From: a virus
DNA length: 64,000 nucleotides
Reading direction: 5' to 3' (one strand)
IMG/VR virus record: IMGVR_UViG_3300031999_000001
Coordinates: 64,001 to 128,000 of that record
In this document: positions 12,194-46,740 of the stretch, piece by piece
Layout of the letters: each line of letters starts with the position of its first letter
Numbering within the stretch: the stretch's first letter is position 1
Position numbers and translations under genes: made by a program
Notes under the pieces: model-generated
What the model saw: the letters and a program-made list of their open reading frames with translations, nothing else
Told to the model about the DNA's origin: nothing
The model's database searches: none

Positions 12194-12751
12194 TTATATA
12201 AAATTTTGAATTTCTTCTTTAATTATGTTAATTAATTTATTATTTTCAAGCAATGTTAAATCACCCTGATTTGCTAAATAAATATTAAATGTTATGTTAT
12301 TTGAAATTTGATTCCTAATACTTTCATATGATTCAATATCGATATCTCTATCTTCATAAACATTTATTTCAATTAAATCCAGTAATTTATTGATATAATC
12401 AAGAATTCTTTGCCCCTTTGTTTTTTCATTACGTTTCATATCAAGTTTATTGACGTGAATTTTATTTACATCAAGAATTGCTTGTACCTGTGGTCGTAGT
12501 TTTTCCATACGTGATGTAAGAATTATCACATAGGTGTTTGGAATTGTTTGTTCTTTTTTCAATTGATTTAATACACTTGGAAATGGTTTAATATCAAAAA
12601 CATTTAAATCTAAACTTTCTGGTCTGCCCCACCATCCGAGATATGGATGTGGCTTTCCCATTTTGTCTGCCCAAGCAACCTTTCCGATTTCTTTTTCAGG
12701 AGAATCAATTAAGGTCCCATCAAAATCAAATGCACAAAATCTTCTTATCAT
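12194..12751 (-). CDS. HAD phosphatase, Swiss-Army-Knife (SAK) RNA-repair type
   Basis: 185 residues. Motif I is FCAFDFDGTLIDSPE (D9, D11). It is followed by a cap-like stretch with PYLGWWGRPESLDL, then motif II VIILTSR near residue 80, and a late acidic motif VYEDRDID. The WWGRPESL segment and order of motifs fit HAD_SAK_1 proteins, which Aravind and colleagues linked to RNA repair. The polynucleotide kinase-phosphatase type is the other option. The gene sits 1 nt after a stand-alone 2H phosphoesterase gene and close to the giant CCA/2H fusion, a context consistent with trimming of RNA-end phosphates. Substrate is inferred, not shown. Confidence 0.7.
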   Translation of the reverse strand: MIRRFCAFDFDGTLIDSPEKEIGKVAWADKMGKPHPYLGWWGRPESLDLNVFDIKPFPSVLNQLKKEQTIPNTYVIILTSRMEKLRPQVQAILDVNKIHVNKLDMKRNEKTKGQRILDYINKLLDLIEINVYEDRDIDIESYESIRNQISNNITFNIYLANQGDLTLLENNKLINIIKEEIQNFI

Positions 12752-12752: not shown

Positions 12753-13136
12753 TTATTTAAATTCTACTTCGGTCACTTTTCCTGTTATTAAAAGTGGTCT
12801 TTTCATTTTTTTCCAATCAGTTAATTTATTGGACATTACTGGTTTGCCACCAATTTCTTTATTTACTGCCAGTGTTATATGTGGTTTGGAATTATCACTT
12901 TGAAAACCACTAACACCAACCGCTATTACTTTATCATCCATAGCTACGTCCCTAACTACCAGACGTACTGGTAATCCTAAAAATCTTTCAAATTCTGGGT
13001 CAATTTCACCCATATTAATTGTCATATGATGTGCAACGATTTCCCAATCTTCAGGAATCATGCTTTTAAATCTTTCGATTAACCTTTGTTTTGATTTGTC
13101 GTCAAGAACGACAGCACTATATGATATATTACCCAT
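12753..13136 (-). CDS. 2H phosphoesterase-like protein (stand-alone)
   Basis: 127 residues. Two HxT motifs are visible: AHHMTINMG (H37-M-T39) and KPHITLAV (H86-I-T88). Their spacing and flanking hydrophobics match 2H enzymes of the LigT/cyclic-phosphodiesterase superfamily. Members hydrolyse 2',3'-cyclic phosphates or 2'-5' bonds at RNA ends. It overlaps the next gene's stop by one base and adjoins the HAD/SAK gene, forming a probable three-gene operon. The family is smaller here than usual (about 180 residues), so it may be a minimal version. Confidence 0.7.
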   Translation of the reverse strand: MGNISYSAVVLDDKSKQRLIERFKSMIPEDWEIVAHHMTINMGEIDPEFERFLGLPVRLVVRDVAMDDKVIAVGVSGFQSDNSKPHITLAVNKEIGGKPVMSNKLTDWKKMKRPLLITGKVTEVEFK

Positions 13137-13792
13137 TAGTAAGTATATTCTGTCAATACATTATAATTTTTACCCAATGCAGTTAATGCAATTTCAACCT
13201 CTTTGAAGCATTCATTGATACCACCACCGCATATCACCAATTTTCCCCCAAATCTTTGTAGATAATCCATTAGGTCAGGAATATTTATCATATCTGATGC
13301 TGCTTCAAGTAAATCTCTAACAGCACTGGAATCATATCCATATTCTGTCATAAAACCATTCCACATTTCTTCATCGATATCTCGGCTATCATTAATGTTG
13401 TTTTGAATCATGTATTTTACCAGATTTACTGTTTCTTCTTCTTCAATGCCTTCATCCATACAATATCTGAAAAAAGCATATCCTTTGTCATAAAATCTGG
13501 CAGAATCCAAAACTTCTTCCTGCAATCCATTTTCATAAAGCCAATCCCTGTACCCAGCTTCACTTACCATTCCCAGAGTGTCTTGACCATTGTACAGAAA
13601 AGTCAATGAATTCATAACGTCAATGTTTTTATTTAAAAACATTATGAATGAATCCAGATTAAAGGTAATATAACTTTCATATTCAGGTTGAATATCGACA
13701 GATATAAAATTTGCACCCTGTACGAGATTTATTCCTGAATTTTCAAGTAATTTATTACGCTGTTGCTCCTTTAGTAATCGTTCCTTTTTCAT
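13136..13792 (-). CDS. Conserved large-phage protein of unknown function
   Basis: 218 residues. Conserved-looking segments are ISVDIQPEYESYITFNLDSF, FYDKGYAFFRYCMDEGIEEE, RDIDEEMWNGFMTEYGYDS and a C-terminal LVICGGGINECFKEVEIALT. I have the impression that this family recurs in large phages beside RNA-repair genes, but I cannot name it. The GGGxxECxKEVE motif could be a binding or active site. It overlaps the 3' end of the 1971-residue gene by 38 nt, so the two are translationally linked. Confidence 0.6.
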   Translation of the reverse strand: MKKERLLKEQQRNKLLENSGINLVQGANFISVDIQPEYESYITFNLDSFIMFLNKNIDVMNSLTFLYNGQDTLGMVSEAGYRDWLYENGLQEEVLDSARFYDKGYAFFRYCMDEGIEEEETVNLVKYMIQNNINDSRDIDEEMWNGFMTEYGYDSSAVRDLLEAASDMINIPDLMDYLQRFGGKLVICGGGINECFKEVEIALTALGKNYNVLTEYTY

Positions 13793-16700
13793 TTAAAACT
13801 TCTCTGTCCGTTAATGCCCAAAGTAATGTTTGTTTAAGTTTTTCATCATGACTGAAATCTTCATAATTATTTTGAAAAAATTCCAGTACTGATTCTTTAG
13901 ATGGGTCTGGATATCCCGGTTTACCACCTTGATTATTCCATTTATCATATTTTTTTATGAAAAAATTAATTCCAACACTTTTACCATTCACCAAATATTT
14001 TTCATATTGAATTTCATTATATTCTTTTAATATGTTTTTTTTGTTTAACATTAATTTTTCTCCCTCATCACCTCTTTGACCTTTAGTTGAAAATACTAAT
14101 TTAGTGCCTCTTATTACTCTTTCTTTTTCAAATAATTTAATATATTTTTTGCCACTACCTGATTTAACATAACCAATTGTTATATGTGGATGATATATTG
14201 GAAAACTTGTGGTATTTGGTAATTGCCTCATAATACCATTCAATTTTGTTAATTCTTTTGAATTAATATCAAATTTAACCACATCAAATTCTGGGTTTCT
14301 GAAAACAGAAATACCAGTAACATGAACATCAATTGGTTTTAATTGCATGTTTTCTTTAAACAATTTAAATACATCATCTGCTGTAACTTCATAATGAAAA
14401 CCATATAAAATCGATAAATGTGGCTCGGTTTCAATGCCATACCCTTCTTTATCATAAATATCGTTTTTATCAATTACTGATGTTATTTTATTCCAATTTA
14501 AAATATCAAAAAATAACATTAAACATCCATACTCGGTTCTTTCACTGGTTCTTTCATTAAGCACGTCACTATTTTGATTTACTAAATTTAACAAATCTTC
14601 TCGATTGTTTTTAATTTTATTTGCATAAATCTTAAGCAATAATGATTTTTGCATATCACCAATTGCTTTATCTTTTAAACCAAGTTCCATCAAATCATTA
14701 CCATTTATTGCCAATTCATTTACTGTTTTTGGATACTTACCTTGAATTAATTCTTGTGCTCCATTTTGAATTATATTGGGTAAAATCTTGCTTTGAAGTG
14801 ATTGTTGTGATGTTACGTACATATTATGTGCAATTGATCTTGCTTCAATGGAATTTGTTGATTCACCATTTTCAAAAGCCATATCAAGTGCCTTAATTTC
14901 TTTATATGTATCAATATCACCCTTTAAATTATTTTTATAAAATTCCGCAGGATTATCAACAAGATTATTGGAAAGTAACCAAATAAATTCTCCCATTGTT
15001 TTTGCATTTTCCCATACATTTCTACCCATTAATAAACCAGCATCTTTACCAAAAATTTCTCTCCTTAATCCAGTTTGTTTTAATAAAATTGCACCTGATA
15101 ATTTATTGCTCTTTTTAACAATTTTATCAAATTCTGTCAAAATTCTTTCGGGCGAAATTTCTTTAATTCTACTTGCATTATCCTTAATCATTTTCATTGT
15201 TTCTGGTTCAATGGTAAAACCAAAACGACTGGCAAAACTGATCATTCTTATCATGCGGAGAGGATCATCCGAAAATGCTTCTGGATTAGCTGCAGAAATT
15301 TCTTTATTTTTTATATCTTCTAATCCACCTAATGGGTCAATAAATTTACCCGTATTTAAATTTATTGCCATTGCATTCATTTTTGCGTCACGCCTAATTA
15401 ATTCATCCTCAATTGGAAGATTTTCATCACTTTGCACATCAAATCCACGATATCCACCCTCGCCTGTTGGTTGTTCTTTACGTGGTAATGCTATATCATA
15501 ATCAGTACCATCTTTATCAATAAATTTTAATACTCCAAATGATTTACCAACAACATCAATTTTACCAAATTTTTGTAAATGTGAAATTAATGTATCAATA
15601 GGTACTTTTCCAACAACCAAATCAATATCCTTATTTGGTTTATTAAGTATGAGATCACGAACAACCCCTCCAACAACATAAACATCCGATTTTAAATCAT
15701 TTATTAATGATTGTATAAATTGTTTTTGTTTCAAAATAGTAATAAAATTATTCAATATTAATTTAGCTTCATTGATATTATTTAAAATTACGTTTGCTTC
15801 ATCAATATTAACATTTGGCTTTGTGAATTTTCTAACAAATACATTAAAAATTGCATTTGCTATATTACGTCCAGTACCTTCTTTTACTTTTTGTCTGAAT
15901 ATTGTTTCGGCTTTATTGGCAATTTCATGTGCTTTATCATATGAAAAATCATAATATTTCATTAAATGTCTTTCAAGTTTTTCATGAAGAATATCGCCTT
16001 CTATATCATTTGGTTTTACAAGAAACACATCATCAATCCAAATTTCATCTTCTGGAATGTTTTTTGCATATTGTTGTTCACTTTCAGGGTTTTTAGCATC
16101 AACATAATAATGTCCACCATCAACAAATTTAATAAATCCACTATCTTTAACTGCATCACCATTAACTGCTATTATTTTAAAATCATTTTCTTTACGAATA
16201 AGAACTTTATTAAGACTATGTGTTATTGCATCTTTTGCAATTTGTTTTTTAAAATCAACTGCAGTTTCCTGTTCTGCTAAATCATTATAATCATCCGATG
16301 ATTTTTCAGGCATGACTGGAACTTTATTACCATATCTTTTATTTATAAATTTTTCAATTGATGCATCACTATAATCTAAAAGTTTTCCAATTTCTCTTGC
16401 TTCTTCAGGTGTGTTATCTTGTAAATATCCACCATGTTTTTTTATGATTTGATATAGTTTTTCGGCTTTATCTTTATTACGATAAACAAGATGCATATTT
16501 AAATCATGATGTGATTGTTCTATTTTAATTAAACCCAAACCAGCTTCAATTACAATATCACGTAATCTTGGAGTTAATATAACCATTGCAACATCTTTTC
16601 TTCCTTCTAAAACTGCTTTAAGTGTACCCTCTTCAGTATATGCTTCACTTGCATCAATTTCTTCAGATATTACATTTCTTTTAATTAAAACCAAATATCC

Positions 16701-19670
16701 ACCATCACCATCTTCTGCAATAATTTCACCAGTTAAATCAAATTCATTAATATCTGAAAAATCCGACTCATTTGAATATCTTTTTGCATCTTCAAATGTT
16801 TTTGTTACCCAGACAATATCACGAGCATTATATTTATCAAGTTCAGCTAATTTTTCCTCAGTAATATGTGCAAAATCACCCACATTTCCCAATTCATCTC
16901 TTTCAAATCTTACCACATCACCAGCAGTTGTATTACGTGAATTACTAAAATTAGAATCCACACGATATGCTTTTTCACTAAATTGTTTATTCTCACGTTC
17001 AGTTACTTCATTAATAACTTTTTCAACAATTTTTTTCAAATCCAAATTATTAATATCACCTTGATTGCATGCAACACTGGTATTGCCCAATCCACCCAAT
17101 CTACATTTCTTTTTTACTGTAACAGTTTGTGCACCGGGCATATATGATAACTTTCTTTCAGTCATAATATATTCATCTTGTGTTGCATCACTAACATAAT
17201 TATATTCTAAATCTTCATTAGTTGGTGGAACATTATTATCAGTAATTGGTGATGTATCATTTTGATTATATGGTGGAAATTCATCCTGACCAATTGCATT
17301 ATCAGTTGAATATCTGGAACTTCCATCTTCTTCAATTTCTACTTTTTGTGGTTCTTGAAATTGTGTTGATGTTAAATCACCAAATCCAATATCAAAAAAA
17401 CCCAAATTACCGTTTTTTTTATACCCTAAATTTGATGTATTAATATAATCCATGCTTTCAATACCATACTTATGTACTTCGTCAGCAATACCTAATAATC
17501 CATAATAAAATTTAGCATCTTCTGGATTTTTTGACATGTATCTATCAATTACGGATTTCTTATCATCATATTCTCCTTGCACATAATCATCAAGAATATG
17601 ATTAAAATCCAAACCTAATATATTTTCAAATGCATAATCTAATCTATCAACAATTCTGTCAAAATACGGCTCGTTTATTTTTAATTTTTCAACAATAATT
17701 ACGTATGATTCAGGAATTGTAGAACCAGATTTTGGATTTATTTGATATATTTCATATATATTGGCAAGATGTTTTAATTCTTTTCCTCTTATTTTTAAAC
17801 CTTCAACTGCCTCACTTTTATCTGAAGTTACTTTCATTATCAAATCATTACCAATATTATATGCAAAACCATGAGTACCCTGACCAGCATATTTCATGTG
17901 TTTATATTGATTTATTTGAACAATTTTACTTCCAATTCTATCGGCAGTTTGTCTATCAAAATTTTCTAAAATATTTTCTTTACCTTCAGGTAAATATATA
18001 ATATTTTTTGATTCAATTGATGGTTCTTCAGCACCATACCCACCAATATCAAAAAATTTTAATACACCATCTTTATATCCTAAATTTGATGGATTACCGT
18101 AATCCCATGATTTAATACCATATTGTATTAATTCTTGAGATATATTGATTATGCCAATAAAATAATTATATGTTTTATTTCTGTCTTCAGTTGTAATATT
18201 AGCTTCTGAATTGTCAATTAGTATATGATTTGCAATATCAATTAATTCCTGATATTCTATTTTACGTTTTCGCATTTTAATATAAACACTTGTAATATCC
18301 AAACCATTTGGTAATATCGTATCAAAAATATTTTCATATTTATGAAATTCAGATATTGGCTTATCAACAACATTTTCTTGAAGTATTGCAAAAAATGTTA
18401 AATTTTTTTCGGTATCAACAATTTTATAAATTGAATATATTTTAGCAAGATATTTTGGATTTTCTCTTAATATTTTAACCCCAGCATCTGCTTCACTAAC
18501 ATCTGCAGTTATTTTTAATATTGTATTATTATTAATAGTAAATGCATGACCATTTGAACCACCCGCTAAATGTTGTGGTTGACCTAAATTTATTTTAAGG
18601 GCAAGTTCATTTGCCAATTCAATTGAATAATTTATGTCATCTAATGAAAATGGGCGTACTTTAGGAATTTCATTTTCATTTATTTCATATTCTTCTTTAA
18701 TTAAACGTTCTCTATCATATGCGTTTTGAGAAATTAAATATTCCTGAAGACTTAATAAGTTATTATAAAATTGTTTTTTATTATTAACATGTTTAAATGT
18801 TTCTTTAAGATTATTCACACATTCATGAAAAAGGTCTATAACATATGGCATACTTGGTAATGGTTTTGTTGGATATTTATCTCTATCAAGTACAAATGAA
18901 ATAAAATCTTCATTTATAACACCTTCACCATCACCAACACCATAAGGAATTATTGCCCACATTCCATGTCTTATTTCACCAGTATCACCAATATCAGAAA
19001 GTATATCATCATTGCCATCAGCACAATCATATAATTCATATAATTCATATTTTTTCTTTCTATCGGGGGAATAATGTGTATCGTACACATCTTTAGTTAA
19101 TCCATAATCGGTTAATACAACAGATGGAATACCACCACGAATTACTTCGCCATAAGTGCTTATTCTATTTAAATCACCGGGGGTTTGACTATAATCCATC
19201 AAAAAATTAGCAATTCTTTGTGTGAATTCTTCATCATTATCCAATTTTTCTTTTATATCTGGCTCAATACTAAAAAAACCTTTATGACCATGATTTTCTT
19301 CATAAAAATTTTTTAAATATGCATAAACATCCCAAATTTTAAAACCAGTTATTTCACCAAATCTTTTTTCGGTTATTTTTTTTGCCTTTTCTGCAACAAG
19401 CCAAGTACTATCATCAGCAGATTCATAAATATTTGTTAAAATATCGTCATAATCTTTATATCTTGCAGCCTGTTCTTCTACCTCATTTTGTGCAATACCT
19501 TTTTGATTTTTTGCTAATTTAAAAACTTTAATACCATCAATATCATATGCAATTCTACCACTACCAGTACCAATTTTTCGTAAATTTTGATTAGCATAAT
19601 CAATTTTTTTCCTAAATGATTGTATTTTACGAAATTCATTTAAGAATTTTAAGAAATCATTATAAGTCAT
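13755..19670 (-). CDS. Giant multidomain protein: kinase-like x3, tRNA nucleotidyltransferase, 2H phosphoesterase
   Basis: 1971 residues in one frame. Three kinase-like repeats are seen at about 31-195, 365-546 and 594-765. Each has a Gly-rich loop (GTGSGRIAY, AGGSNGHAF, AGQGTHGFAY), a following Lys and an LxxIY strand; the last two also have SNLGYK...FFDIG, resembling the catalytic Asn and DxG. Residues 900-1000 look weakly like an ADP-ribosyltransferase fold. LHEKLERHLMKYY (1228-1240) resembles a metal-site helix. Residues 1327-1680 are a class II CCA/poly(A) polymerase: GGVVRDLI, DID (D1348, D1350), RRDAKMNAMAIN, DDPLRMIRMISFASRFGF. Residues 1745-1860 are a 2H phosphoesterase (H1751-L-S1753, H1829-I-T1831). 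It plausibly removes cyclic phosphate and rebuilds RNA 3' ends. Confidence 0.75.
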   Translation of the reverse strand: MTYNDFLKFLNEFRKIQSFRKKIDYANQNLRKIGTGSGRIAYDIDGIKVFKLAKNQKGIAQNEVEEQAARYKDYDDILTNIYESADDSTWLVAEKAKKITEKRFGEITGFKIWDVYAYLKNFYEENHGHKGFFSIEPDIKEKLDNDEEFTQRIANFLMDYSQTPGDLNRISTYGEVIRGGIPSVVLTDYGLTKDVYDTHYSPDRKKKYELYELYDCADGNDDILSDIGDTGEIRHGMWAIIPYGVGDGEGVINEDFISFVLDRDKYPTKPLPSMPYVIDLFHECVNNLKETFKHVNNKKQFYNNLLSLQEYLISQNAYDRERLIKEEYEINENEIPKVRPFSLDDINYSIELANELALKINLGQPQHLAGGSNGHAFTINNNTILKITADVSEADAGVKILRENPKYLAKIYSIYKIVDTEKNLTFFAILQENVVDKPISEFHKYENIFDTILPNGLDITSVYIKMRKRKIEYQELIDIANHILIDNSEANITTEDRNKTYNYFIGIINISQELIQYGIKSWDYGNPSNLGYKDGVLKFFDIGGYGAEEPSIESKNIIYLPEGKENILENFDRQTADRIGSKIVQINQYKHMKYAGQGTHGFAYNIGNDLIMKVTSDKSEAVEGLKIRGKELKHLANIYEIYQINPKSGSTIPESYVIIVEKLKINEPYFDRIVDRLDYAFENILGLDFNHILDDYVQGEYDDKKSVIDRYMSKNPEDAKFYYGLLGIADEVHKYGIESMDYINTSNLGYKKNGNLGFFDIGFGDLTSTQFQEPQKVEIEEDGSSRYSTDNAIGQDEFPPYNQNDTSPITDNNVPPTNEDLEYNYVSDATQDEYIMTERKLSYMPGAQTVTVKKKCRLGGLGNTSVACNQGDINNLDLKKIVEKVINEVTERENKQFSEKAYRVDSNFSNSRNTTAGDVVRFERDELGNVGDFAHITEEKLAELDKYNARDIVWVTKTFEDAKRYSNESDFSDINEFDLTGEIIAEDGDGGYLVLIKRNVISEEIDASEAYTEEGTLKAVLEGRKDVAMVILTPRLRDIVIEAGLGLIKIEQSHHDLNMHLVYRNKDKAEKLYQIIKKHGGYLQDNTPEEAREIGKLLDYSDASIEKFINKRYGNKVPVMPEKSSDDYNDLAEQETAVDFKKQIAKDAITHSLNKVLIRKENDFKIIAVNGDAVKDSGFIKFVDGGHYYVDAKNPESEQQYAKNIPEDEIWIDDVFLVKPNDIEGDILHEKLERHLMKYYDFSYDKAHEIANKAETIFRQKVKEGTGRNIANAIFNVFVRKFTKPNVNIDEANVILNNINEAKLILNNFITILKQKQFIQSLINDLKSDVYVVGGVVRDLILNKPNKDIDLVVGKVPIDTLISHLQKFGKIDVVGKSFGVLKFIDKDGTDYDIALPRKEQPTGEGGYRGFDVQSDENLPIEDELIRRDAKMNAMAINLNTGKFIDPLGGLEDIKNKEISAANPEAFSDDPLRMIRMISFASRFGFTIEPETMKMIKDNASRIKEISPERILTEFDKIVKKSNKLSGAILLKQTGLRREIFGKDAGLLMGRNVWENAKTMGEFIWLLSNNLVDNPAEFYKNNLKGDIDTYKEIKALDMAFENGESTNSIEARSIAHNMYVTSQQSLQSKILPNIIQNGAQELIQGKYPKTVNELAINGNDLMELGLKDKAIGDMQKSLLLKIYANKIKNNREDLLNLVNQNSDVLNERTSERTEYGCLMLFFDILNWNKITSVIDKNDIYDKEGYGIETEPHLSILYGFHYEVTADDVFKLFKENMQLKPIDVHVTGISVFRNPEFDVVKFDINSKELTKLNGIMRQLPNTTSFPIYHPHITIGYVKSGSGKKYIKLFEKERVIRGTKLVFSTKGQRGDEGEKLMLNKKNILKEYNEIQYEKYLVNGKSVGINFFIKKYDKWNNQGGKPGYPDPSKESVLEFFQNNYEDFSHDEKLKQTLLWALTDREVLNEKGTITKGATA

Positions 19671-19742: not shown

Positions 19743-20396
19743 TTATTGCGCTTTGTTTTGTTTCGCCTTCGCCTGAATTTCACGAATAGTTTCGTACACC
19801 AACGTTTTTATTAAATCTCTATTTTCATGTAAAACTTCTTTTATTCTTTCAACAGCATACATTTCAAGAATTGTGCTTTTTATGGCTTCTTCAACAACAA
19901 GACCAAAATTATCAATAAGATAATTATCCACAATTTTTTTAACATTTTCAACTAAATAACCTTCATTTAAATTAATTGGCATGCCAGTAGTTGTTTTTGG
20001 TTGTTGCGGTAATGTTTTTGATGTTATATGTTCTTGCATTGATTCTGCCAATGTTTGTTTTCTTTTTCTTTCAAGATCATGGAATAATTGTTCATCTCTT
20101 TCGGGTGACATATCTTCTTTAATTACAGGTGCTTGTGATGTTAAAGCAATTTCACTTACATCATGTTTTACAGGTTCGCCATGTTTGACAGCAACTTTAT
20201 TTTCAACTAATTTAATTAATTTTGTTGAAGGTGTTTCAACACCAGTATTACGTGATTTTAATAATCCATGTAAAAATGCATCTCTTGGTGCAATATCAGT
20301 ACCAACATTTTCTCCCAACGATGATTGTATTATGTTTTTTTGTTTTTTACGACTATCAATTTCACTTTTAAGTTTATTTAAATCAGGTTTAATCAT
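19743..20396 (-). CDS. Hypothetical protein, mostly helical
   Basis: 217 residues. N-terminal KLKSEIDSRKKQKNIIQSSL is coiled coil. The middle is Pro/Thr/Lys-rich and likely disordered. The C-terminal helical segment (NVKKIVDNYLIDNFGLVVEE then AIKSTILEMYAVERIKEVLH) may mediate assembly. No catalytic motif. A GTATTTATA box sits 23 nt upstream. Possibly a virion-internal or scaffold protein; not recognised. Confidence 0.45.
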   Translation of the reverse strand: MIKPDLNKLKSEIDSRKKQKNIIQSSLGENVGTDIAPRDAFLHGLLKSRNTGVETPSTKLIKLVENKVAVKHGEPVKHDVSEIALTSQAPVIKEDMSPERDEQLFHDLERKRKQTLAESMQEHITSKTLPQQPKTTTGMPINLNEGYLVENVKKIVDNYLIDNFGLVVEEAIKSTILEMYAVERIKEVLHENRDLIKTLVYETIREIQAKAKQNKAQ

Positions 20397-20432: not shown

Positions 20433-21329
20433 TTATTTGAAAAAAGTCTTTCTTTCAATAGGAATATTTGTAATATTTTCTTTCATCATTTGTTCTTTTT
20501 TTATTACAGGTTCTTTTTTCATTCCAGCTTCTTTACGTTGTTTAAAGAATTTATCTTTTTCTGGTTCTGATTTTATTGGTTTAACTAAGGTATCAAAAAG
20601 ATTAGTTAATGTACCAACAATTGATTCTGGTGGAATTTTATCTTTATTTATAACATCAACTAATTCAAATTCATTATTATCATTAATTGCAACCAAATAT
20701 CTACTACGTGCCGTTTTCATTACTCGTGATGCAATATTATATAGTTTATTAATATCTTGGGCAGTTGCTTTCCTGTTATTTTTATTTGCATCATAAAATC
20801 TTTTCCATTTTGATGTTTGTGTATCAAATGCGGATACTTTTTGTGCAACAACATTTGGTTTACCGATACTATCCATGCCTTTTGTTTGTACCATTTTTTC
20901 TGGTGTTCTGGTAACTGCAGCAATTGGATTAGGTATATCTTCATCGGTGTCTTTATATGAATCAGGTAATAAAACTTTACCTTCTTTATCAACAAATTTT
21001 TTACCTGTTGGATATATTGATGCTATTTTATCAACACGAAATAATCTCCACATTGGAATAGGTTTTCTAATAGCACCACTATCACTTTTACCCCTATCCT
21101 GCCATGCTCTTAATACTAAATTTCCACTGGTTGCATGATTACCCAAAACAAACGGTTTTATTGTCCGATAACCTTTCTTTATTGATTTATCACCAGCATA
21201 ATAAATATAAATGTATTCATGATTTTGAATAGCATCAACAATATCATTATTATCAACAGCTTCTGTTATAAGATTATAATGACGAAAATTTTTAATATTA
21301 TCAATTAATATTTTGACTTCGGTTAACAT
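20433..21329 (-). CDS. WYL-like domain protein
   Basis: 298 residues. Residues about 30-125 follow the WYL pattern: AIQNHEYIYIYYAGDKSIKK, then GYRTIKPFVLGNHATSGNLV, LRAWQD and WRLFRVDKIASI. WYL domains bind ligands or nucleic acids and occur in bacterial regulators and phage-defence proteins. Here no helix-turn-helix precedes it. The C-terminal half is Lys-rich and probably disordered, with a helix YNIASRVMKTARSRYLVAIN. It abuts the 79-residue gene upstream (shared base 21329). A regulatory or virion-associated role is possible; the WYL call rests on pattern only. Confidence 0.55.
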   Translation of the reverse strand: MLTEVKILIDNIKNFRHYNLITEAVDNNDIVDAIQNHEYIYIYYAGDKSIKKGYRTIKPFVLGNHATSGNLVLRAWQDRGKSDSGAIRKPIPMWRLFRVDKIASIYPTGKKFVDKEGKVLLPDSYKDTDEDIPNPIAAVTRTPEKMVQTKGMDSIGKPNVVAQKVSAFDTQTSKWKRFYDANKNNRKATAQDINKLYNIASRVMKTARSRYLVAINDNNEFELVDVINKDKIPPESIVGTLTNLFDTLVKPIKSEPEKDKFFKQRKEAGMKKEPVIKKEQMMKENITNIPIERKTFFK

Positions 21330-26500: not shown

Positions 26501-27216
26501 TTTTGTATAAGTTTAATTTCGGCTTCATCATCATTTAATTTCTCGGCTTCAAGAATTACTTCAAAATCCCTATTATCTCTTACACCAATTGCAAAAACCC
26601 TTCCTGTTTGATATCTTAAACTTGTTGTTTCAATATCAAAGGTAACTTTATGAATATTTTTATATTCTTCTATGCCTTTAAAAAGTCTGGTTTGATTTGA
26701 AATAAAAAATTGTTCAGTGAGTCTTGTAGAATAAAAAAAGTTACGATATAAATATACCAATTCACCCTTTTTATTTCTAATAAAATCATCATTTTCATCC
26801 CTTGCTTTTTCATATGGATTAATGCCACCATCTGTAAAATAATTTATAATATCATTATATGACCTGCGACTTGTTACCTTATAACAATATCCATCAATTA
26901 ATCTTTTTTGATTACCTGTTTTTAATTTAGTAATTGTAATACCATATTTAATTTTTTTACTTTCAATAAAATTTTCATCAGCACCTTTATATAATTTATA
27001 ATTTAATTTTGTTAAATCTTTCACATACATAAAGGGTTCATAATATATTTTTACAATTTTTGGCTTTTGATTTGGTTCATGTATAACACATTCGGCAATA
27101 TTTGTGCTTGGGTCTGTTTCAACATTTACCAAATATTTTAAATCATTATTATAGCCTTCGAGAAATCCCTTAATTTCTCCCAAAACTTTTGCTTTATCCA
27201 TTTCCATTTTCAACAA
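23536..27216 (-). CDS. Family B DNA polymerase with 3'-5' exonuclease
   Basis: 1226 residues, replicative polymerase of the phage. The exonuclease domain shows Exo I FDIETTSL (about 190) and Exo II ITGFNSEMFDFEFIL (about 253). The polymerase domain shows motif A DYAGLYPSI (about 535), motif B KTLNNSLYGALGSH (about 623) and motif C LLAVTDGINF (about 673). In motif C the usual DTD reads VTD: the first Asp is Val while the essential second Asp is kept. The part after motif C is about 550 residues, longer than in T4 gp43. The start could also be the inner Met (MEMDK or MDKAK); the given start overlaps the QueC-like gene by 23 nt. Confidence 0.85.
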   Translation of the reverse strand: MLKMEMDKAKVLGEIKGFLEGYNNDLKYLVNVETDPSTNIAECVIHEPNQKPKIVKIYYEPFMYVKDLTKLNYKLYKGADENFIESKKIKYGITITKLKTGNQKRLIDGYCYKVTSRRSYNDIINYFTDGGINPYEKARDENDDFIRNKKGELVYLYRNFFYSTRLTEQFFISNQTRLFKGIEEYKNIHKVTFDIETTSLRYQTGRVFAIGVRDNRDFEVILEAEKLNDDEAEIKLIQKFFNLIDHLRPAIITGFNSEMFDFEFILGRAKLLKMNLSEVPTGLKEKIQLKRKANTSVKYGNTADKYTWTDMWGYSVIDILHAVRRTAAVNSEIKENKLKYIAKFEKIARPNRTYIAGEDNSIGKYYYENKIFLVDEKNNYIQIPNEFQDVARNLYKLQANKSNITNEEYNSAKKNYLDKCKEFITWFKAEAFPKNLITFIGGKKLVKQYLLDDLWETEQIDELYNQSSFMLAKIVPTTYQRICTIGTAGIWNLLMTAWSYENDLAIPSPDVYNRFSGGLARTYKIGYIERIIKIDYAGLYPSIQLTEDVFPIFDITGVMKKILLYLTTTRNIYKKLANSSKLDEEEKTLFRQIDPEKHVKFINNEFMFADISMFKIKQLPIKTLNNSLYGALGSHISFNWSDNVCAARITCTARLHLRHAINWFNKFGCIPLLAVTDGINFKIPNTTTICVTDKGITEGLNEGLIEDMWQYDGKTGINALIEKYNKEEMKPPYMSIDNDGESISCLNLARINYATLSLVKDKKTDEMKEKIKLTGNTIKSKIMPEYIEDFIDKGFDLILHGKGKEFLDYYNDYAGNLYYERIPLKKIASKSRVKTTINAYNKRGKDKNGHKKGKQAYMELLIEKRQKIANELFEKHKANLGFTKSEEKLSDDDKMKLVINYMPPEPELDSVVYYVNTGTKKSEGNSATIKDVETGKNRFCATLINAEDLQENPNMIGKYNAVKYLDAFNKRVMTLLVGFEPDIAKKILSKTIKDKKTKEMKFEQANFASFQLELKNFDLDDFDESMYLEKPEVDFWNKTGYDPRKVWDGFKMYDDNKIYYEIYNNALTYLNELMTAKNKPRIKSINDEYKENDLVLIKNGGEYNVGLFNGVFFEIIRENVNIPKSEIELEFDRKREEEAQKIKELEITLSNKTERDRYLEILKIKRIKYFDRFKKRFKIADEITMEELFESEEMASNTLDMYIKQIEGIEEDEIAEYMGLDIDDID

Positions 27217-28027
27217 ATATTATATCATTTTCATTATTAATAAAATCAAATTCTAATTGATATGGTTTTTTTTCTTCTTCAACCTTGTACCAATTTTGAA
27301 AATAATCATTACCTTCTTTATCGGTTACTTTAAAACCCCGTTGCACTAAAGTACTTGCATATTTTTCCGTTAGTTTTTTGCTATAAATATCTAAAAATCC
27401 TTTAAGTTCATAATATTCACTTGCAATTATGGTCTTACATGATGCACATTCACAACAAGGTTCATATTCAATAAATTCAACATCTTTTGAACCTTTAATT
27501 TTTGCTATCTCACAACTAAAAATATATTTGCGATATTGTTCGGGAAGTTCTTCTGCCATTTGGCGTTTCTTCATTTTAGTAAGTGGAAACGTAAGTGGCT
27601 TCATTGGCTCACTAATTGCTTGATATGATTTGTAAATATTTTGAATATCATCCAGATATGAAATAGCATCATCATTACTGACATATCCTATTTGAATTTC
27701 ATCAATATTATCCATACCCTGTAGAAATACAACCGTAAATATCCAAATTGGCATTTGTTTAAAATATAAACTACCTTCATTCGCATGTACATCTACTTTT
27801 ACGGCATATTGAATCGGTTTTAAATTAAAACTATCGTTTTTATGAAATTCTTTTTCAAATTCTTTCCAGAGTAATTCAATACGATTTTTTTCCAGAATTG
27901 TTTTAACTTCATTATTTTCAATTTCAACATAAATTGGAAACACAATATTATCTTCTTTAAGATTTTTCCATACCAGATATGTTGAATCCAATCCACCTGA
28001 AAATAATATAGCAATTTTTTTACTCAT
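27194..28027 (-). CDS. QueC-like PP-loop enzyme (7-cyano-7-deazaguanine synthase family)
   Basis: 277 residues. The N-terminal AILFSGGLDSTYLVW is a PP-loop ATP-pyrophosphatase motif (SGGLDS). A distal FSCEIAKIKG then EPCCECASCKT gives a Cys cluster like the zinc site of QueC. QueC makes preQ0, the precursor of queuosine in tRNA and of 7-deazaguanine DNA modifications that protect some phages from restriction. No QueD, QueE, FolE or DpdA gene is visible in this window. It lies between the polymerase and helicase genes in one tightly packed set. A different PP-loop substrate is possible. Confidence 0.65.
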   Translation of the reverse strand: MSKKIAILFSGGLDSTYLVWKNLKEDNIVFPIYVEIENNEVKTILEKNRIELLWKEFEKEFHKNDSFNLKPIQYAVKVDVHANEGSLYFKQMPIWIFTVVFLQGMDNIDEIQIGYVSNDDAISYLDDIQNIYKSYQAISEPMKPLTFPLTKMKKRQMAEELPEQYRKYIFSCEIAKIKGSKDVEFIEYEPCCECASCKTIIASEYYELKGFLDIYSKKLTEKYASTLVQRGFKVTDKEGNDYFQNWYKVEEEKKPYQLEFDFINNENDIIFVENGNG

Positions 28028-28036: not shown

Positions 28037-30862
28037 TTATTTTTTATGTTTTTCTTTAATTTTATTAATTACTTCACCTAATACCGATTCTTCAATATTT
28101 GATTTATAATCTTCGTTATCCATTACTTTAACAATTTCTTTACGCTTGCTTTCAATAGCTGAAAATACATAATCATCGATAGTATCTCTAAAAATTAATG
28201 GATAAATATTTACAATTGCTTTTTGACCAATTCTATGAAGACGATCAGAAACTTGGTCATAATCACCCACGCTGTATGGTAATGTTATTAAAAATAATTT
28301 ACTTGCTGCTGTTAAAGTCAGACCATATCCACATGTTTGTATTGAACCTAAAAAAACTTTCATGCTACTATTTGGGTCTTGAAATGTTTTAACTATTTCT
28401 GCACGTTCTTCATCAGTTTGGTCACCAGTATGTAATCCAGCAATATCACCAAGTTTTTTCTTTAATTGTTGTATTGATTCTTTAAAAAAATCAACAACTA
28501 CAATTTTTTCGCCCGTTTCTAAAATATTCTCAATTAATTCAATAACTGGTTTGATTTTTAAATGTGATGTATATTGTCTTAAACGCAACATTGTTGTTAA
28601 CGGATTCCCATTTGGATGCATCACAAAATCATTTGCAACACCCTCTTCAATTTCATTGTACATATCATATTCATTTTCTTCCATTTCCAACATAACTCTC
28701 TGATAAATTTTATCTGGAAGGTCTTTCAAAACCTCAAATTTTCTTTTTCTATGTGTGAATGGTGCAATTTTATGATAAAGTTCTTCAAATTTTGCTTCTA
28801 CATTATCAGTTATATAACCCCAACCACCATAAATATCATAAGACATTCCACAATAATATTCCATAAAATATTTTTTTGTGGCAAAATCTATTGGTGATAT
28901 TTGATTTAAAACTGTATATAATTCATGCGCTCTATTGGGAGCAGGAGTTCCTGATAAGAAAATTTTACTAATTTTTTCGTTTTTAAATATTGTTTTATTA
29001 AATATTCTTTTAAAATTTTTATAAGTATTGGCTTTTGTATTTTTCAATTTTGCACACTCATCTGCAATAATCACATCAATTTTATTAAGTTTTAATTTCT
29101 CCCATTTTGTTAAAAATTTTTCTTTATTACTTGAATTAAAAAAATCATAATTGATTATTATATATTTAGCATCTTCAATTGAACATTTATTTTTTCTCCA
29201 ATTTACAATATGTGAATTACTTTTTGTAAATTTTTCGACTTCATTATAAAAATTAAATTTTAATGAGTTTGGAGTAATAACCACAACTTTTTCAAAATTA
29301 TTCATTTCAACATAAAGTATTGCCGAAAGTGTATTATGTGTTAATATACAGTGGTCTATAACATATAATTGGTCTTTAGAATCAACCATAATGCATTGTG
29401 CCTCTTTTTTTCCAACATATTTAACACCAGAAATTGCTCTATTAGGTAAATATTTTGTTGGTGCTATAAAATTATTAATTTTTCTTTTTAATTTAAACGG
29501 TATAAATTTTGATGGTAATTTGATATATAATCTATAATATAATCTTTTTTCTCCATTATACATCACCCACTTATCATGAAGTCTTCCAATACCACCTAAT
29601 GATTGAACAATAAATTGAACATCATCAATTAATTGTTTTGATGCCAATGTTATTTCAATAAATCCTTGTCGTTTGCTTACATGACCATCAGTATCTAAAA
29701 TACCTTGTAATAATTCTAATCTTTGATTAATTGATGCAAATTTAAAATCATTTGGAATAAATTTGGTGTACGAATTACATCCCTTTAAATTATATATTTT
29801 TAATGCTTGATTAATATAATTATTTTTACCATCAGCAGTCAAATAATAATCTTTTAAAGATTTTCCATTATGCACCATATTATGATTATTAGGTAATCTT
29901 ATTGTAATTTCATCAATAATTTCTTTGTCAAATGAACTAAAACCAATACCATTTAATACAGTTATACTTCCATCACCTAAGATACAACCTAATACATAAG
30001 GATTTATCTTTAATTCTTTTTCTTCAAATTCGATTGGTTTAACTATTGGAATATAATGTTTATGATTACCATTTTTAAATGTCAATCCTTCATTCATTAT
30101 TTCATTTAATGTTTTGGTCATAAATGGATTTTTTCTCCAATTTCTAATATATGTATTTACATTCCATAAATGTTCATCACATGATTGTGCTGAAGTACCG
30201 TCATTAAAACAAACTTCATATATATCTTTTATTCCTTGCGGATAGACACCTAATACTTTTTTCGGTTTACCATCACTTCCAATTACAAAATTACCTACTT
30301 TTATATCACCCATTTTAATCCATCCATTTGGTGTAAGTAATTTAGAATCAAGCGGATTCGCTTTTCCTGTCCCCATCTCGTGGGAAATCAATGTGTTACG
30401 TGTAACATTCATAAACATTGCAGCTACAATTTGATGAGGATAAAGTATCACTCCTTCATTTACCAATGCATGCATTTTATCTGAATATTGAATATAATTT
30501 TGTTCAAGTTCCAGTTTATATTTAACCCAATGTTCTTTTTTAATATTTAAATCAGCAATGAATTTACGTTTTTCTTCTTCGGCAATTTCTATTTTTTTAA
30601 TTTGTTGAATAAAAACTTTTCGACTATCTTCGTTTCCAAAATCAAAATGAATTTTATTTGAACCCTTATATTTTTTAATAAGAGATAATAACGATGGTGT
30701 TGTGACTTCCCATGCCATATCCATTGCGTTCCATTTTCTTGTTTCTTCTGGAAGGTCTTTTATGCGTTTAACAAGCTGGTCATTATAAAAAAATCTCAGA
30801 TAATATGCTAATCTTCTTGAGATTCGTTCGCAATGCACCGTGAAAACCGATAGTTCTTGCAT
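28037..30862 (-). CDS. SNF2-type helicase interrupted by an intein
   Basis: 941 residues as encoded. The N-extein has YPHQIVAAMF (Q-like motif) and HEMGTGK, the start of the Walker A box. After splicing this continues with T, giving GTGKT. The C-extein carries ADECAKLKN (DExx box), SGTPAPN (motif III), VVVDFFKES, TGDQTDEERA and SDRLHRIGQ (motif VI), so all SF2/SNF2 motifs are present. Mature length after intein removal would be about 598 residues. Such phage helicases act in replication or recombination. It is the most upstream gene of the replication run (helicase, QueC-like, polymerase). The only interruption is the intein listed separately. Confidence 0.85.
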   Translation of the reverse strand: MQELSVFTVHCERISRRLAYYLRFFYNDQLVKRIKDLPEETRKWNAMDMAWEVTTPSLLSLIKKYKGSNKIHFDFGNEDSRKVFIQQIKKIEIAEEEKRKFIADLNIKKEHWVKYKLELEQNYIQYSDKMHALVNEGVILYPHQIVAAMFMNVTRNTLISHEMGTGKANPLDSKLLTPNGWIKMGDIKVGNFVIGSDGKPKKVLGVYPQGIKDIYEVCFNDGTSAQSCDEHLWNVNTYIRNWRKNPFMTKTLNEIMNEGLTFKNGNHKHYIPIVKPIEFEEKELKINPYVLGCILGDGSITVLNGIGFSSFDKEIIDEITIRLPNNHNMVHNGKSLKDYYLTADGKNNYINQALKIYNLKGCNSYTKFIPNDFKFASINQRLELLQGILDTDGHVSKRQGFIEITLASKQLIDDVQFIVQSLGGIGRLHDKWVMYNGEKRLYYRLYIKLPSKFIPFKLKRKINNFIAPTKYLPNRAISGVKYVGKKEAQCIMVDSKDQLYVIDHCILTHNTLSAILYVEMNNFEKVVVITPNSLKFNFYNEVEKFTKSNSHIVNWRKNKCSIEDAKYIIINYDFFNSSNKEKFLTKWEKLKLNKIDVIIADECAKLKNTKANTYKNFKRIFNKTIFKNEKISKIFLSGTPAPNRAHELYTVLNQISPIDFATKKYFMEYYCGMSYDIYGGWGYITDNVEAKFEELYHKIAPFTHRKRKFEVLKDLPDKIYQRVMLEMEENEYDMYNEIEEGVANDFVMHPNGNPLTTMLRLRQYTSHLKIKPVIELIENILETGEKIVVVDFFKESIQQLKKKLGDIAGLHTGDQTDEERAEIVKTFQDPNSSMKVFLGSIQTCGYGLTLTAASKLFLITLPYSVGDYDQVSDRLHRIGQKAIVNIYPLIFRDTIDDYVFSAIESKRKEIVKVMDNEDYKSNIEESVLGEVINKIKEKHKK
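29333..30361 (-). mobile_element. Class 3-like intein with LAGLIDADG endonuclease in helicase P-loop
   Basis: Residues 168-510 of the helicase ORF (343 residues). It begins with Ala (ANPLDSKLLTPNGW) directly after HEMGTGK and ends ILTHN before extein Thr511. Block B reads CDEHLW. The block F position that is usually Asp is Cys (QCIMVDS, C490). The residue before the penultimate His is Thr (T508). Trp, Cys, Thr in these places together with a non-nucleophilic first residue are the signature of class 3 inteins. Two LAGLIDADG-type motifs, YVLGCILGDGSI and LLQGILDTDG, make it a potential homing element. Insertion in the Walker A loop disables the helicase until splicing. Confidence 0.85.
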
Positions 30863-41823: not shown

Positions 41824-42651
41824 TTACACTATTAAACCAGTACCCAAAGCATCAAGACATGTCTCTATTGCATTTATTAATATAGCGTATTGAGTAGCGT
41901 CTAAATATGCACCAATCCAAACATATCTCAATTGTTTTGCACAACCATTTGCAGTACCATTATTATTAAATCCACAAGCATACATTTCTTTTGTTGGCAA
42001 TGCAACCGATAATCTTGTTATATTTGCTGTTAATGCTAAATTTTGCCATAAATTTTGTTTAGTACTTAAAATTCTTGTTATACCAAAATGCCCAGCAGTT
42101 TGAATTGATGTTACTGTAGAAGCTGCTGCAGCATTTAATGCACCATAAAATGATGTACCTCCCCAACTTCTTAAAAGTGCCAAATTCGCACCATCAGAAA
42201 CTCCAACATCATAACTTGTATTTGCAGCAGTTGCACAACCTTCAATAATACAGCAATCATCCAGTTTATAATTAACACCATTAACATTGGGCGTAAAATT
42301 TAATCTTACATATCTTACTGATAAAGCATTACCAATTGTTCCCTCATACTGTGTCCACACTGGTGAATTAATTGGTGCTGGATTACAAGCTCCCAAAGGG
42401 TTAATCCAATTATAATATGCTTCTAAATTATTATTTGAATGCGTACTAAAAAAATCAAATACATCACCTTTTGCCCAAATACCAGCATCAACAATTGTTT
42501 TAACCATTGTATTGTAATACCCTGCAATTGCATCTGAAGGCTTTACAATCCAAGTATCATAAATTGTTTGAAATTGTGAGCAATAACCTGCTGAAGGTGT
42601 TTGAATCAACCTGTTATTAATTGTCAGTATTTTATTATTTAATGTAAGCAC
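41824..42651 (-). CDS. Tail protein with lectin-like domain
   Basis: 275 residues. Begins with a short anchor LTLNNKILTINNRLIQTPSA. It continues with IYDTWIVKPSDAIAGYYNTM, then DAGIWAKGDVFDFFSTHSNN and YYNWINP. I associate this arrangement with a domain common in tail proteins of Bacteroidota phages and prophages, which often reads like a carbohydrate-binding fold. It is Ala/Cys-rich (DDCCIIEGCATAANTS). A receptor-contact role is inferred. Confidence 0.5.
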   Translation of the reverse strand: MLTLNNKILTINNRLIQTPSAGYCSQFQTIYDTWIVKPSDAIAGYYNTMVKTIVDAGIWAKGDVFDFFSTHSNNNLEAYYNWINPLGACNPAPINSPVWTQYEGTIGNALSVRYVRLNFTPNVNGVNYKLDDCCIIEGCATAANTSYDVGVSDGANLALLRSWGGTSFYGALNAAAASTVTSIQTAGHFGITRILSTKQNLWQNLALTANITRLSVALPTKEMYACGFNNNGTANGCAKQLRYVWIGAYLDATQYAILINAIETCLDALGTGLIV

Positions 42652-42675
42652 AATATTGAATTATTAGTATCATTT

Positions 42676-43293
42676 TTATACTGGAGCATTACAAGTAATT
42701 GCCGTTTGAAGAATACAAGTACTTCCAATACAATAACTTGCGACACCTGCACCAGTTACGGGCGTTACAGAAACAATACAAATACAACTACATGCACACC
42801 CTGTAAAAGGACCTGATTTACTGGCTAAATTCCAAAAACATATATTATCTGCATTTTTAACATTAACACATTTTGTACCATTACATGAAACAGGACCAGC
42901 AGCAACACAGGATAATACTTGTGTTGCACCAGAATAAATATTTACACAAGCAACACCACTGACAATAGCACTATTAATAACATAACAAAAACAAACATTA
43001 TAACAAGTTGATGCCACTCTTGCTTTAGAATATGTAAGACATCCGCATTTCCAAACACATGCAGCATTCAAATTTGTATTGCAACACAAATAACTTGTCA
43101 TATTAACAACATTTTCTGGCACATAACTATAAAATTCAGTCATTGCATGTGGTGCTGATTTACCAGCAGCAACACTTAATGCGGATAAACAAGATGTCTG
43201 TCCAGTACCACCACAAACAGCAGCAGAAATTGATGAGCAAGCTGAACCTGCAACTGATATAATTCCTAAACTCCCCGAAGCTGCTATTGTCAT
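42676..43293 (-). CDS. Cysteine-rich virion protein
   Basis: 205 residues with 23 cysteines (11 percent), including CC, CGC and CACSCIC. The N-terminal half is Ala/Ser/Gly-rich (AASGSLGIISVAGSACSSIS); the C-terminal half is beta-rich. The spacing is irregular rather than zinc-finger-like. Disulfide or metal cross-linking in an extracellular fibre part is possible. It sits between the lectin-like protein and the S74 fibre. No family recognised. Confidence 0.5.
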   Translation of the reverse strand: MTIAASGSLGIISVAGSACSSISAAVCGGTGQTSCLSALSVAAGKSAPHAMTEFYSYVPENVVNMTSYLCCNTNLNAACVWKCGCLTYSKARVASTCYNVCFCYVINSAIVSGVACVNIYSGATQVLSCVAAGPVSCNGTKCVNVKNADNICFWNLASKSGPFTGCACSCICIVSVTPVTGAGVASYCIGSTCILQTAITCNAPV

Positions 43294-43298
43294 AATTA

Positions 43299-45119: not shown

Positions 45120-45135
45120 TTTTATTTAAATTATT

Positions 45136-46740
45136 TTAACTAAAACATAATGTGGCACTTATTGCACCAACAGTTCCACTCATATAAACTTTATAACATA
45201 TATCCGTCCAGCATAACTGTCCAGAAGAAACACATAATTGACATTCATCAGGATATTTATCACTTGGTGCATTATTAACCTTACCATTATCAAGTGCTGT
45301 AACATACCAACATGTTTTTGATGTTGTTGCTACTGGAATTGCAAGCCAAGTATATTGATTTGATGCACTACTAAAATTAATTGCAAGAGTACCTGTACTA
45401 ACTGCAAGAACTTTAGTTCCACCAGTTACAAGTGCTGAAGTTACCACAGGACGTGTACTACCAGTAAGTTTTCCCCAATAATATGGATAAATACCACTAA
45501 TTGTGCGACTTGCTGCACTTGTCACACCAGTGGCAAGTGGTGTGTTAAAATTAGTGCCTTTACTTCCTTTAGGTTGAACACCAATATCATAACATGTTGA
45601 TATTGTCCAAGTTTGACTTGCACAAACAACATATGAACTTCCTGATTTCATTACACTTGAACCACTACATGCATATGAACCAACTACCTGACAACCAGTA
45701 AAATTATAACAATTTGCATAACCACTTCTTTTATCCGAAGTACTACAACCCTGTGGGTTTATACAACCTCTATTAAATGTACCAGTTACACATAATGTTG
45801 AAATACTACATCCAATTTCATATAAAGTAGTTGTTGGAGATATGCTGATTGTAGTTGAAGGAGCAGTTAATGTTCCAAATATTTCAGGCACTAATAATTC
45901 TTCGAATAATTGAAATGCCGTTTTTCCTGTTAAAACTGTACCACCACTGATACCACCGACAGTACATACAGCAGGTGACCCTAAATTATATGTTGTACCT
46001 GTAAAAGCATTAAATACAGCTTTCGTAACATATGTAGCAGGTGCTGTTGTGCCAGTATAAGTATTAAATATTGTTGTATTTAATTTAGTATCAAGAATAT
46101 TTTGTAAATCGGTTTGTCCTGAAAGCGTACCAGTAATTGTACCCCAAGTACCACCACCAGTTGAACCTGTTGTTATGATATATCCGGCATATGGTAAAAC
46201 CCAACCACTTGTTGAAGAATCAGCAATTAATACTGATTTACTTATATGTGTATTACCAGTGGGTTCTACTGAAGTTAATAAACCTGCAGTAATGTCACTA
46301 AGAAAATATGTACTATTAATAGTTATGCCAGTTAAACCTGTAACATAACCAGCTTGTGTTAATTCAAAACAATTAGCATTTAAATATTTACTTACAATAC
46401 CCAAAACTTCACCATCATAACTACCATCAGCAATTGCTTTATTATATGTTCCACCACTCCAGCCAATAACATCATTAATATTAAAACCATGTGAATTTTG
46501 AATTATTTCTTTGGTAATTCTTTCACCGGATATTGATATTGCATTTTGCCAAGTTCCCGTACCACCAGAATCTGAAGTTAATATTTTACCAACACCATAA
46601 TTTGATAATATTGATATTGTTGCACCACTTTTTATTGCAAAATGACCATAAATATTGGTATTACCAGATAAACTTAATGTTTCACCAGAAAATTGTTCAA
46701 ATTTACTATCACTTAGATTAGGTTTTGTATCAATTGCCAT
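45136..46740 (-). CDS. Tail fibre, type B N-terminus
   Basis: 534 residues. N-terminal FEQFSGETLSLSGNTNIYGH is a type B anchor. A central module RITKEIIQNSHGFNINDVIG with YDGEVLGIVSKYLNANCFEL is shared with the gene at 54273. The C-terminal part (YEIGCSISTLCVTGTFNRGC, INPQGC, KGSKGTNF, PYYWGKL, GGTKVLAVSTG, QLCW...YKVYMSG) is a paralogous tip also found at 51208 and 56000. It is Cys-rich in the tip. A GTATTTATA box pair lies upstream. Confidence 0.65.
   Translation of the reverse strand: MAIDTKPNLSDSKFEQFSGETLSLSGNTNIYGHFAIKSGATISILSNYGVGKILTSDSGGTGTWQNAISISGERITKEIIQNSHGFNINDVIGWSGGTYNKAIADGSYDGEVLGIVSKYLNANCFELTQAGYVTGLTGITINSTYFLSDITAGLLTSVEPTGNTHISKSVLIADSSTSGWVLPYAGYIITTGSTGGGTWGTITGTLSGQTDLQNILDTKLNTTIFNTYTGTTAPATYVTKAVFNAFTGTTYNLGSPAVCTVGGISGGTVLTGKTAFQLFEELLVPEIFGTLTAPSTTISISPTTTLYEIGCSISTLCVTGTFNRGCINPQGCSTSDKRSGYANCYNFTGCQVVGSYACSGSSVMKSGSSYVVCASQTWTISTCYDIGVQPKGSKGTNFNTPLATGVTSAASRTISGIYPYYWGKLTGSTRPVVTSALVTGGTKVLAVSTGTLAINFSSASNQYTWLAIPVATTSKTCWYVTALDNGKVNNAPSDKYPDECQLCVSSGQLCWTDICYKVYMSGTVGAISATLCFS

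What the first reader, a model, noticed from the sequence alone, without database searches (positions are those of the whole stretch)
13755..19670. 1971-residue fusion of tRNA nucleotidyltransferase and 2H phosphoesterase behind three kinase-like domains
The GG...DxD, RRD and DDPLRxxR motifs of a class II CCA enzyme and two HxT/S motifs of a 2H enzyme are intact. Many bacterial CCA enzymes carry an HD phosphohydrolase instead; here a 2H domain would play that end-healing role. Repeats with SNLGYK...FFDIG resemble kinase active sites. I do not know this architecture.
Basis: partly seen in the sequence, partly recalled or inferred. Interest (0 to 1): 0.85.

Follow-up and report, generated by a model that had tools for sequence, protein, structure and literature searches.

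The report
Phage enzyme polyprotein with capsid-protease sites
A giant bacterial virus encodes one very long protein that strings together kinase-like, tRNA-repair and other enzyme modules, with likely cutting sites for its own capsid protease between nearly all of them, as if a kit of tools is loaded into the virus head as a chain, snipped apart there and delivered with the DNA.

Summary
The ORF is real (13755-19670, minus strand, 1971 aa), and its CCA and 2H catalytic motifs are conserved in relatives. An AlphaFold2 model finds protein-kinase/APH folds in the kinase region. It is a large 'polyvalent' phage protein (Iyer 2017 class). About 37 distinct relatives carry the same backbone with swappable cassettes: K1-K2-K3-linker-[GNAT, ART-like, D1, D2, VADK, ParB]-CCA-[2H, VADK]-CT tail-[second 2H]. 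New here: 120 of 141 cassette junctions carry [L/I/M]-x-E (59 expected from shuffles), and [L/I]-N-E is 8-fold enriched. L/I-x-E is the T4 gp21 prohead-protease site. The window's phage has a capsid protein with INE at residues 58-60; its relative has an S77 protease starting MSMIFPLNE. So this is probably a head-packaged polyprotein matured by the prohead protease and injected. The 2H domain is not a fixed substitute for an HD domain: it is in 11 of 37 loci and relates to LigT and Acb1. The constant partner is a different small 2H protein (window 12753-13136, tRNA-ligase-CPD-like), fused to the same polypeptide in 15 relatives. Packaging, cleavage and activities are untested.

The parts
13755..19670 (-). 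1971-aa polyvalent polyprotein gene
   Evidence: relatives
19056..19589 (-). K1: divergent kinase-like domain (res 28-205)
   Evidence: phrog_4301 1.5e-9; AF2 model m8ce8ba8b37d8 and Foldseek kinases; invariant K, E, D, D in 19 sequences
17991..18650 (-). K2: truncated kinase-like domain (res 341-560), catalytic K/E/D/N/D kept
17376..17915 (-). K3: truncated kinase-like domain (res 586-765), catalytic K/E/D/N/D kept
17016..17345 (-). conserved linker segment (res 776-885)
   Evidence: present in most relatives, sometimes split by inserted cassettes
16662..16982 (-). swappable domain, ART-like by motif only (res 897-1003); replaced by GNAT in L006
   Evidence: no family or PDB hit assigns it
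16281..16640 (-). D1 swappable domain (res 1011-1130), fold like PDB 2guk; weak NleE similarity
15816..16265 (-). D2 swappable domain (res 1136-1285), invariant HE..ER.LM...AH..AN..E; stand-alone in L007
14571..15686 (-). class II CCA tRNA nucleotidyltransferase domain (res 1329-1700)
14031..14537 (-). 2H phosphoesterase cassette (res 1712-1880), LigT/Acb1-like, both HxT/S motifs
13788..14015 (-). CT tail domain (res 1886-1961), conserved in most relatives
14553..14561 (-). predicted prohead-protease site LNE (res 1704-1706), CCA/2H junction
15768..15776 (-). predicted prohead-protease site INE (res 1299-1301), D2/CCA junction
18675..18683 (-). predicted prohead-protease site INE (res 330-332), K1/K2 junction
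12753..13136 (-). small 2H protein, tRNA-ligase-CPD-like; fused to the C-end of the polyprotein in 15 relatives
12194..12751 (-). HAD phosphatase/PNK-like neighbour (HAD_SAK_1 8e-4, phrog polynucleotide kinase 1.3e-5); present in 30 of 37 loci
13136..13792 (-). 218-aa neighbour overlapping the 3' end; conserved 9-residue N-terminus ending in LKE/IKE
20433..21329 (-). neighbour with conserved N-terminal propeptide-like segment ending in [LI]xE before G, A or S; possibly co-packaged
19743..20396 (-). conserved upstream neighbour (217 aa)

Best explanation
The gene encodes a capsid-packaged polyvalent polyprotein of a large T4-type phage, probably infecting Bacteroidota. During head assembly the chain is taken into the prohead. 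The phage's gp21/S77-type prohead protease cuts after the Glu of [L/I]-x-E (often [L/I]-N-E) sites between cassettes. The released enzymes (truncated kinases, other modifying domains, a CCA-adding tRNA nucleotidyltransferase, a 2H phosphoesterase) are then injected with the DNA. The kinases and other domains would modify host proteins. The CCA enzyme would restore or add 3' CCA on damaged host tRNAs and on phage tRNAs, which are encoded without CCA. The 2H cassette would open cyclic phosphates on RNA ends or destroy cyclic-nucleotide defence signals. With the neighbouring CPDase-like 2H protein, the HAD phosphatase and the phage RNA ligases it forms an RNA-repair kit. Shown: domains, conservation of catalytic residues, cassette swapping, site enrichment, capsid protein with a matching motif, protease in the relative, RNA ligases. 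Inferred: packaging, cleavage, injection, activities.
For: Sites: [LIM]xE in 120 of 141 junctions versus 59+-5 shuffled; [LI]NE 59 versus 7.4+-2.4; control motifs LxD and LxK at shuffled level. After de-duplication to 79 junctions below 50% similarity, [LI]NE is 32 versus 4.3+-2.0 (maximum 12 in 2000 shuffles) with Asn favoured at P2. The window protein holds 9 [LI]NE, more than any other ORF of its record. Same motif in head proteins: major capsid protein INE at 58-60 in the window's own record and in G001, protease N-terminus MSMIFPLNE; S77 hit in G001; T4 gp21 cuts L/I-X-E and has LIE-9 (PMC9026906). Low-confidence linkers at cassette borders in AF2. Cassette swapping. Kinase fold. Polyvalent precedents: truncated kinases in Bacteroidetes phages, 2H, peptidases. 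RNA ligases; phage tRNA genes without encoded CCA.
Against: No virion proteomics. The N-terminal LxE (MTYNDFLKFLNE) is kept in only about two thirds of relatives, so a cleaved targeting peptide is not established. Where the CCA part is a separate ORF, it usually starts directly at the domain with no propeptide, so CCA need not always be packaged. The window's 200-kb record ends before the place of the protease gene. [LI]NE also occurs inside folded domains at background rate. Junctions before VADK cassettes mostly lack L/I-x-E. ExL and [LIM]xxE are also modestly raised in junctions. Relatives share ancestry, so the junction counts are not fully independent.
Confidence: 0.6

Rival explanations
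1. Stable multi-domain polyvalent protein, packaged and injected whole or cut by an embedded metallopeptidase-like domain (for example D2 with its HExxE..H motif), as proposed by Iyer 2017 for other polyvalent proteins.
For: Iyer 2017 describes zincin domains as the most common domain and likely autoprocessing; D2 has invariant HE..E...H...E residues.
Against: D2 is missing in many relatives and has no zincin match; the enriched junction motif equals the capsid-protein and protease N-terminal motif.
Confidence: 0.17
2. Intracellular RNA-repair fusion as first proposed: CCA and 2H domains act together on damaged tRNA ends, the kinase-like domains phosphorylating RNA or regulating the enzyme; not packaged.
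For: Intact motifs; 2H directly behind CCA in 8 loci; RNA ligases in the genome; split relatives keep CCA as a stand-alone ORF.
Against: 2H is optional and moves about; the kinases belong with polyvalent conflict proteins; cut-site enrichment at junctions would be unexplained.
Confidence: 0.13
3. The chain is a prohead core or scaffold component that the protease simply degrades, the enzyme domains being passengers or decayed.
For: T4 core proteins are cut at many L/I-X-E sites (PMC9958956, PMC9026906).
Against: Catalytic residues are conserved across divergent relatives for CCA, 2H and the kinases; sites concentrate at domain borders.
Confidence: 0.05
4. On the 2H cassette alone (compatible with the packaged-polyprotein account): it is an anti-CBASS or anti-CRISPR phosphodiesterase (Acb1-like) rather than an RNA-end enzyme.
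For: All 13 members match PF23474 Acb1 (best 3.4e-9) besides PF13563 and PF02834; Acb1 structure matches weakly; Iyer 2017 favours RNase action or signal degradation for polyvalent 2H domains.
Against: The LigT-family and archaeal PH0099 matches are as good or better; it often follows the CCA enzyme.
Confidence: 0.4

Closest known systems
Polyvalent proteins of phages and conjugative elements (Iyer et al. 2017, PMC5512222)
   Same: Many unrelated enzyme domains in one phage protein; truncated kinases lacking the C-terminal subdomain in Bacteroidetes phages; 2H, GNAT, ART and ParB domains; cassette swapping; predicted injection.
   Different: A CCA-adding enzyme as a near-constant core is not described in the paper (no 'CCA-adding' in its text); junctions carry the phage's prohead-protease motif, whereas the paper invokes embedded peptidases.
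T4 internal proteins and Alt processed by gp21
   Same: L/I-x-E cut sites, T4-type capsid genes, 9-residue protease propeptide ending in LxE, likely delivery with DNA.
   Different: T4 internal proteins and Alt lose terminal peptides; here a chain of many enzymes would be cut between domains.
phiKZ/201phi2-1/SPN3US head ejection proteins
   Same: Large phages with extensive prohead-protease processing of head proteins at x-x-E.
   Different: Cuts there remove propeptides; motif S/A-x-E in phiKZ; no enzyme cassette chain.
Jumbo-phage RNA repair enzymes (PMC7824862)
   Same: CCA enzyme, 2H, PNK/phosphatase and RNA ligases in one genome.
   Different: Described there as phage proteins of their own; here CCA and 2H enzymes sit inside a polyvalent chain.
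Acb1 anti-CBASS 2H phosphodiesterase
   Same: 2H fold with two HxT motifs, matched by all 13 cassette members.
   Different: Similarity of the window member is below Pfam's cut-off and shared with LigT families.

Membership tests
Polyvalent proteins (Iyer 2017) | several domains of disparate activity in one phage polypeptide | tested here: met
Polyvalent proteins (Iyer 2017) | kinase domains without the C-terminal subdomain but with active-site residues | tested here: met
   about 180-220 residues per domain ending shortly after the DFG-like motif; K/E/D/N/D kept in K2 and K3
Polyvalent proteins (Iyer 2017) | packaged in the capsid and injected | not testable with these tools
   needs virion proteomics
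Class II CCA-adding enzyme | GG, DxD, RRD and (E/D)DxxR motifs, head plus RNA-binding domains | tested here: met
Class II CCA-adding enzyme | adds CCA to tRNA rather than poly(A) | not testable with these tools
   best NCBIfam model is CCA transferase, above PcnB
2H phosphoesterase | two HxT/S motifs in a LigT-family sequence | tested here: met
Acb1 anti-CBASS | score above the family cut-off | tested here: inconclusive
   window member 20.8 bits against 27; best relative E=3.4e-9
gp21-processed T4-type internal protein | L/I-x-E sites at processing positions | tested here: met
gp21-processed T4-type internal protein | N-terminal targeting peptide ending in L/I-x-E | tested here: inconclusive
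   site in about two thirds of relatives
gp21-processed T4-type internal protein | S77 prohead protease encoded by the same phage | tested here: inconclusive
   present in relative G001 next to the capsid gene; the window's record ends before that place

The most novel reading that the evidence does not exclude
A DNA phage uses a true polyprotein: one chain of interchangeable counter-defence and tRNA-repair enzymes, loaded into the head and cut into separate enzymes by the prohead protease, so that tRNA repair and host-modifying activities enter the cell before any phage gene is expressed. The protease site acts as the border that lets cassettes be exchanged.
Probability: 0.5. Interest if true: 0.85.

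Novelty: new variant of a known kind. Interest (0 to 1): 0.68.

Why it matters
It would link two fields kept apart, polyvalent conflict proteins and T4 head maturation, by one testable rule: where the prohead protease cuts. It also places tRNA repair among functions that may be delivered with the DNA, and gives a motif for finding further injected enzymes in large metagenomic phages, probably of Bacteroidota.

Tried and rejected
Pfam on 19 kinase-region members gave no kinase family; the fold was seen only by structure. PDB profile search with the kinases gave nothing real (a PBP2X match at 0.04 is chance). The ART-like label was not confirmed by any search. D1 matches to NleE and 2guk are too weak for a function. 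RtcB ligase: only a sub-threshold match. T4-type late promoter TATAAATA: no clear link to this gene in an AT-rich genome. Kinase scan of cellular genomes: one Bacteroidota metagenome contig only. Named phage records: only weak K1-like matches in XacN1 and Alishewanella phages. An assembly artefact was rejected because single ORFs of 1300-2700 aa with kinases and CCA recur in many independent contigs.
Full report
Observation. The reading frame is exactly as stated. It lies in a 200,057-base IMG/VR virus record, positions 64001-128000, with phage baseplate, tail-fibre, DNA polymerase and helicase genes. Family searches recover the CCA enzyme and the 2H domain. The catalytic positions are invariant or nearly so in 23 CCA and 13 2H sequences. 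The three repeats are invisible to Pfam, but an AF2 model (mean pLDDT 80) matches aminoglycoside phosphotransferases and MAP kinases with probability near 1. Because that model holds several domains, the search does not say which of the three gives the match; residue conservation supports all three, with K1 divergent.

Relatives. Four scans of viral contigs gave about 37 distinct CCA-bearing loci. Their backbone order is regular: K1, K2, K3, a conserved linker, a variable middle (GNAT, ART-like, D1, D2, VADK, ParB), CCA, optional 2H or VADK, a tail domain CT, and in 15 cases a second small 2H domain. In G001, a 349-kb relative syntenic with the window's record over most of its length, the gene is split by a LAGLIDADG-like endonuclease ORF, and a ParB-like domain precedes CCA. 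In L006 a GNAT replaces the ART-like domain and the 2H is absent. The window's exact combination was not seen elsewhere, but most neighbour pairs recur. This is cassette exchange. The names ART-like, GNAT, ParB-like and LAGLIDADG-like for cassettes and insert rest on my reading of the sequences, not on a family match.

The 2H question. The fused 2H cassette is in 11 of 37 loci and matches LigT and Acb1 families. The small 2H protein next door (12753-13136) is present, fused or separate, in 32 of 37 loci. Its first HxT motif is invariant and its second nearly so, and all 20 members match the tRNA ligase CPD family. The HAD phosphatase-like neighbour is in 30 of 37. RNA ligases of the Rnl2 type (window record and G001) and Rnl1 type (G001) are encoded elsewhere. 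Of 33 ARAGORN tRNA genes in G001 none clearly encodes CCA behind the acceptor stem; the Gly gene at 260179 is ambiguous (read by eye from the tails). So a tRNA-repair role for the CCA part is likely; the cyclic-phosphate healing role fits the neighbour better than the fused 2H.

Cut sites. T4 gp21 cuts after Glu in L/I-X-E, and gp21 itself carries LIE-9 (PMC9026906); T4 gp23 loses 65 residues (PMC9958956). In G001 the S77 protease ORF (intein-interrupted) starts MSMIFPLNE, and the capsid protein carries HMINE at 58-60, as does the capsid protein of the window's own record. The capsid-protein call is mine, from gene order (next to a scaffold-like ORF and the protease) and sequence; no family search was run on it. 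The junctions between cassettes carry [LIM]xE in 120 of 141 cases against 59+-5 in shuffles of the same residues. Control motifs [LIM]xD and [LIM]xK stay at shuffled level; Ex[LIM] and [LIM]xxE are modestly raised. [LI]NE is 59 against 7.4. De-duplicated to 79 junctions, [LI]NE is 32 against 4.3 with a maximum of 12 in 2000 shuffles. A conserved N-terminal segment ending in [LI]xE before G, A or S in neighbour 20433-21329 and LKE/IKE at residue 9 of neighbour 13136-13792 suggest that adjacent genes also feed the head. Low AF2 confidence marks the borders 999-1006 and 1116-1136.

Reading. The simplest account is a head-packaged polyvalent polyprotein cut by the prohead protease. Iyer 2017 compared polyvalent proteins with RNA-virus polyproteins but proposed embedded peptidases; I found no paper in the library describing prohead-protease cutting between enzyme domains. 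That search covers open-access papers only. Weak points: no virion data; the N-terminal site is not fully conserved; stand-alone CCA ORFs lack a propeptide; relatives are not independent; the protease was found only in the relative.

Novelty. Each part is known. The combination of a CCA enzyme as near-constant member, a regular order with exchange of cassettes and a protease motif at the seams is new to me, so I call it a new variant of a known kind.

Noticed in passing
window 28037-30862: SNF2-type helicase gene appears to carry an intein inserted at the Walker A motif (MGTGKANPLDSKLLTPNGWIKMGDI...); the L006 homologue has an uninterrupted EMGLGKTAVS.
   Followed up: no
G001:214152-216080 (loci L012, L013): S77 prohead protease interrupted by an intein-like insert right behind the EADHPD motif, likely at the catalytic His.
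   Followed up: partly
window 20433-21329 and relatives: Conserved neighbour with weak WYL similarity and an N-terminal propeptide-like segment ending in [LI]xE before G, A or S.
   Followed up: partly
G000:135177-138706, 189804-190652; G001:145932-148777, 203377-204102, 234208-234705: Otherwise different ORFs share an N-terminal tag like K(Q/E)RLFEVMxK, in most cases followed by LNE, resembling capsid-targeting peptides with a protease site.
   Followed up: partly
L007 9929-18326: Several neighbouring ORFs of another large phage repeat a segment such as ES..DILKPK at or near their starts and again inside the chain, possibly an analogous targeting or cassette-border signal.
   Followed up: no
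window 41824-57124: Long run of tail-fibre-like genes, several unusually rich in Cys, Thr and Gly.
   Followed up: no
window 47844-48638, 57131-57655; L005 12489-13493; L006 13310-14251: Many homing-endonuclease-like ORFs, two of them sitting exactly where the polyprotein gene is split in relatives.
   Followed up: partly
window 27194-28027: QueC-like gene (phrog_1550 6e-24), suggesting a 7-deazaguanine pathway.
   Followed up: no
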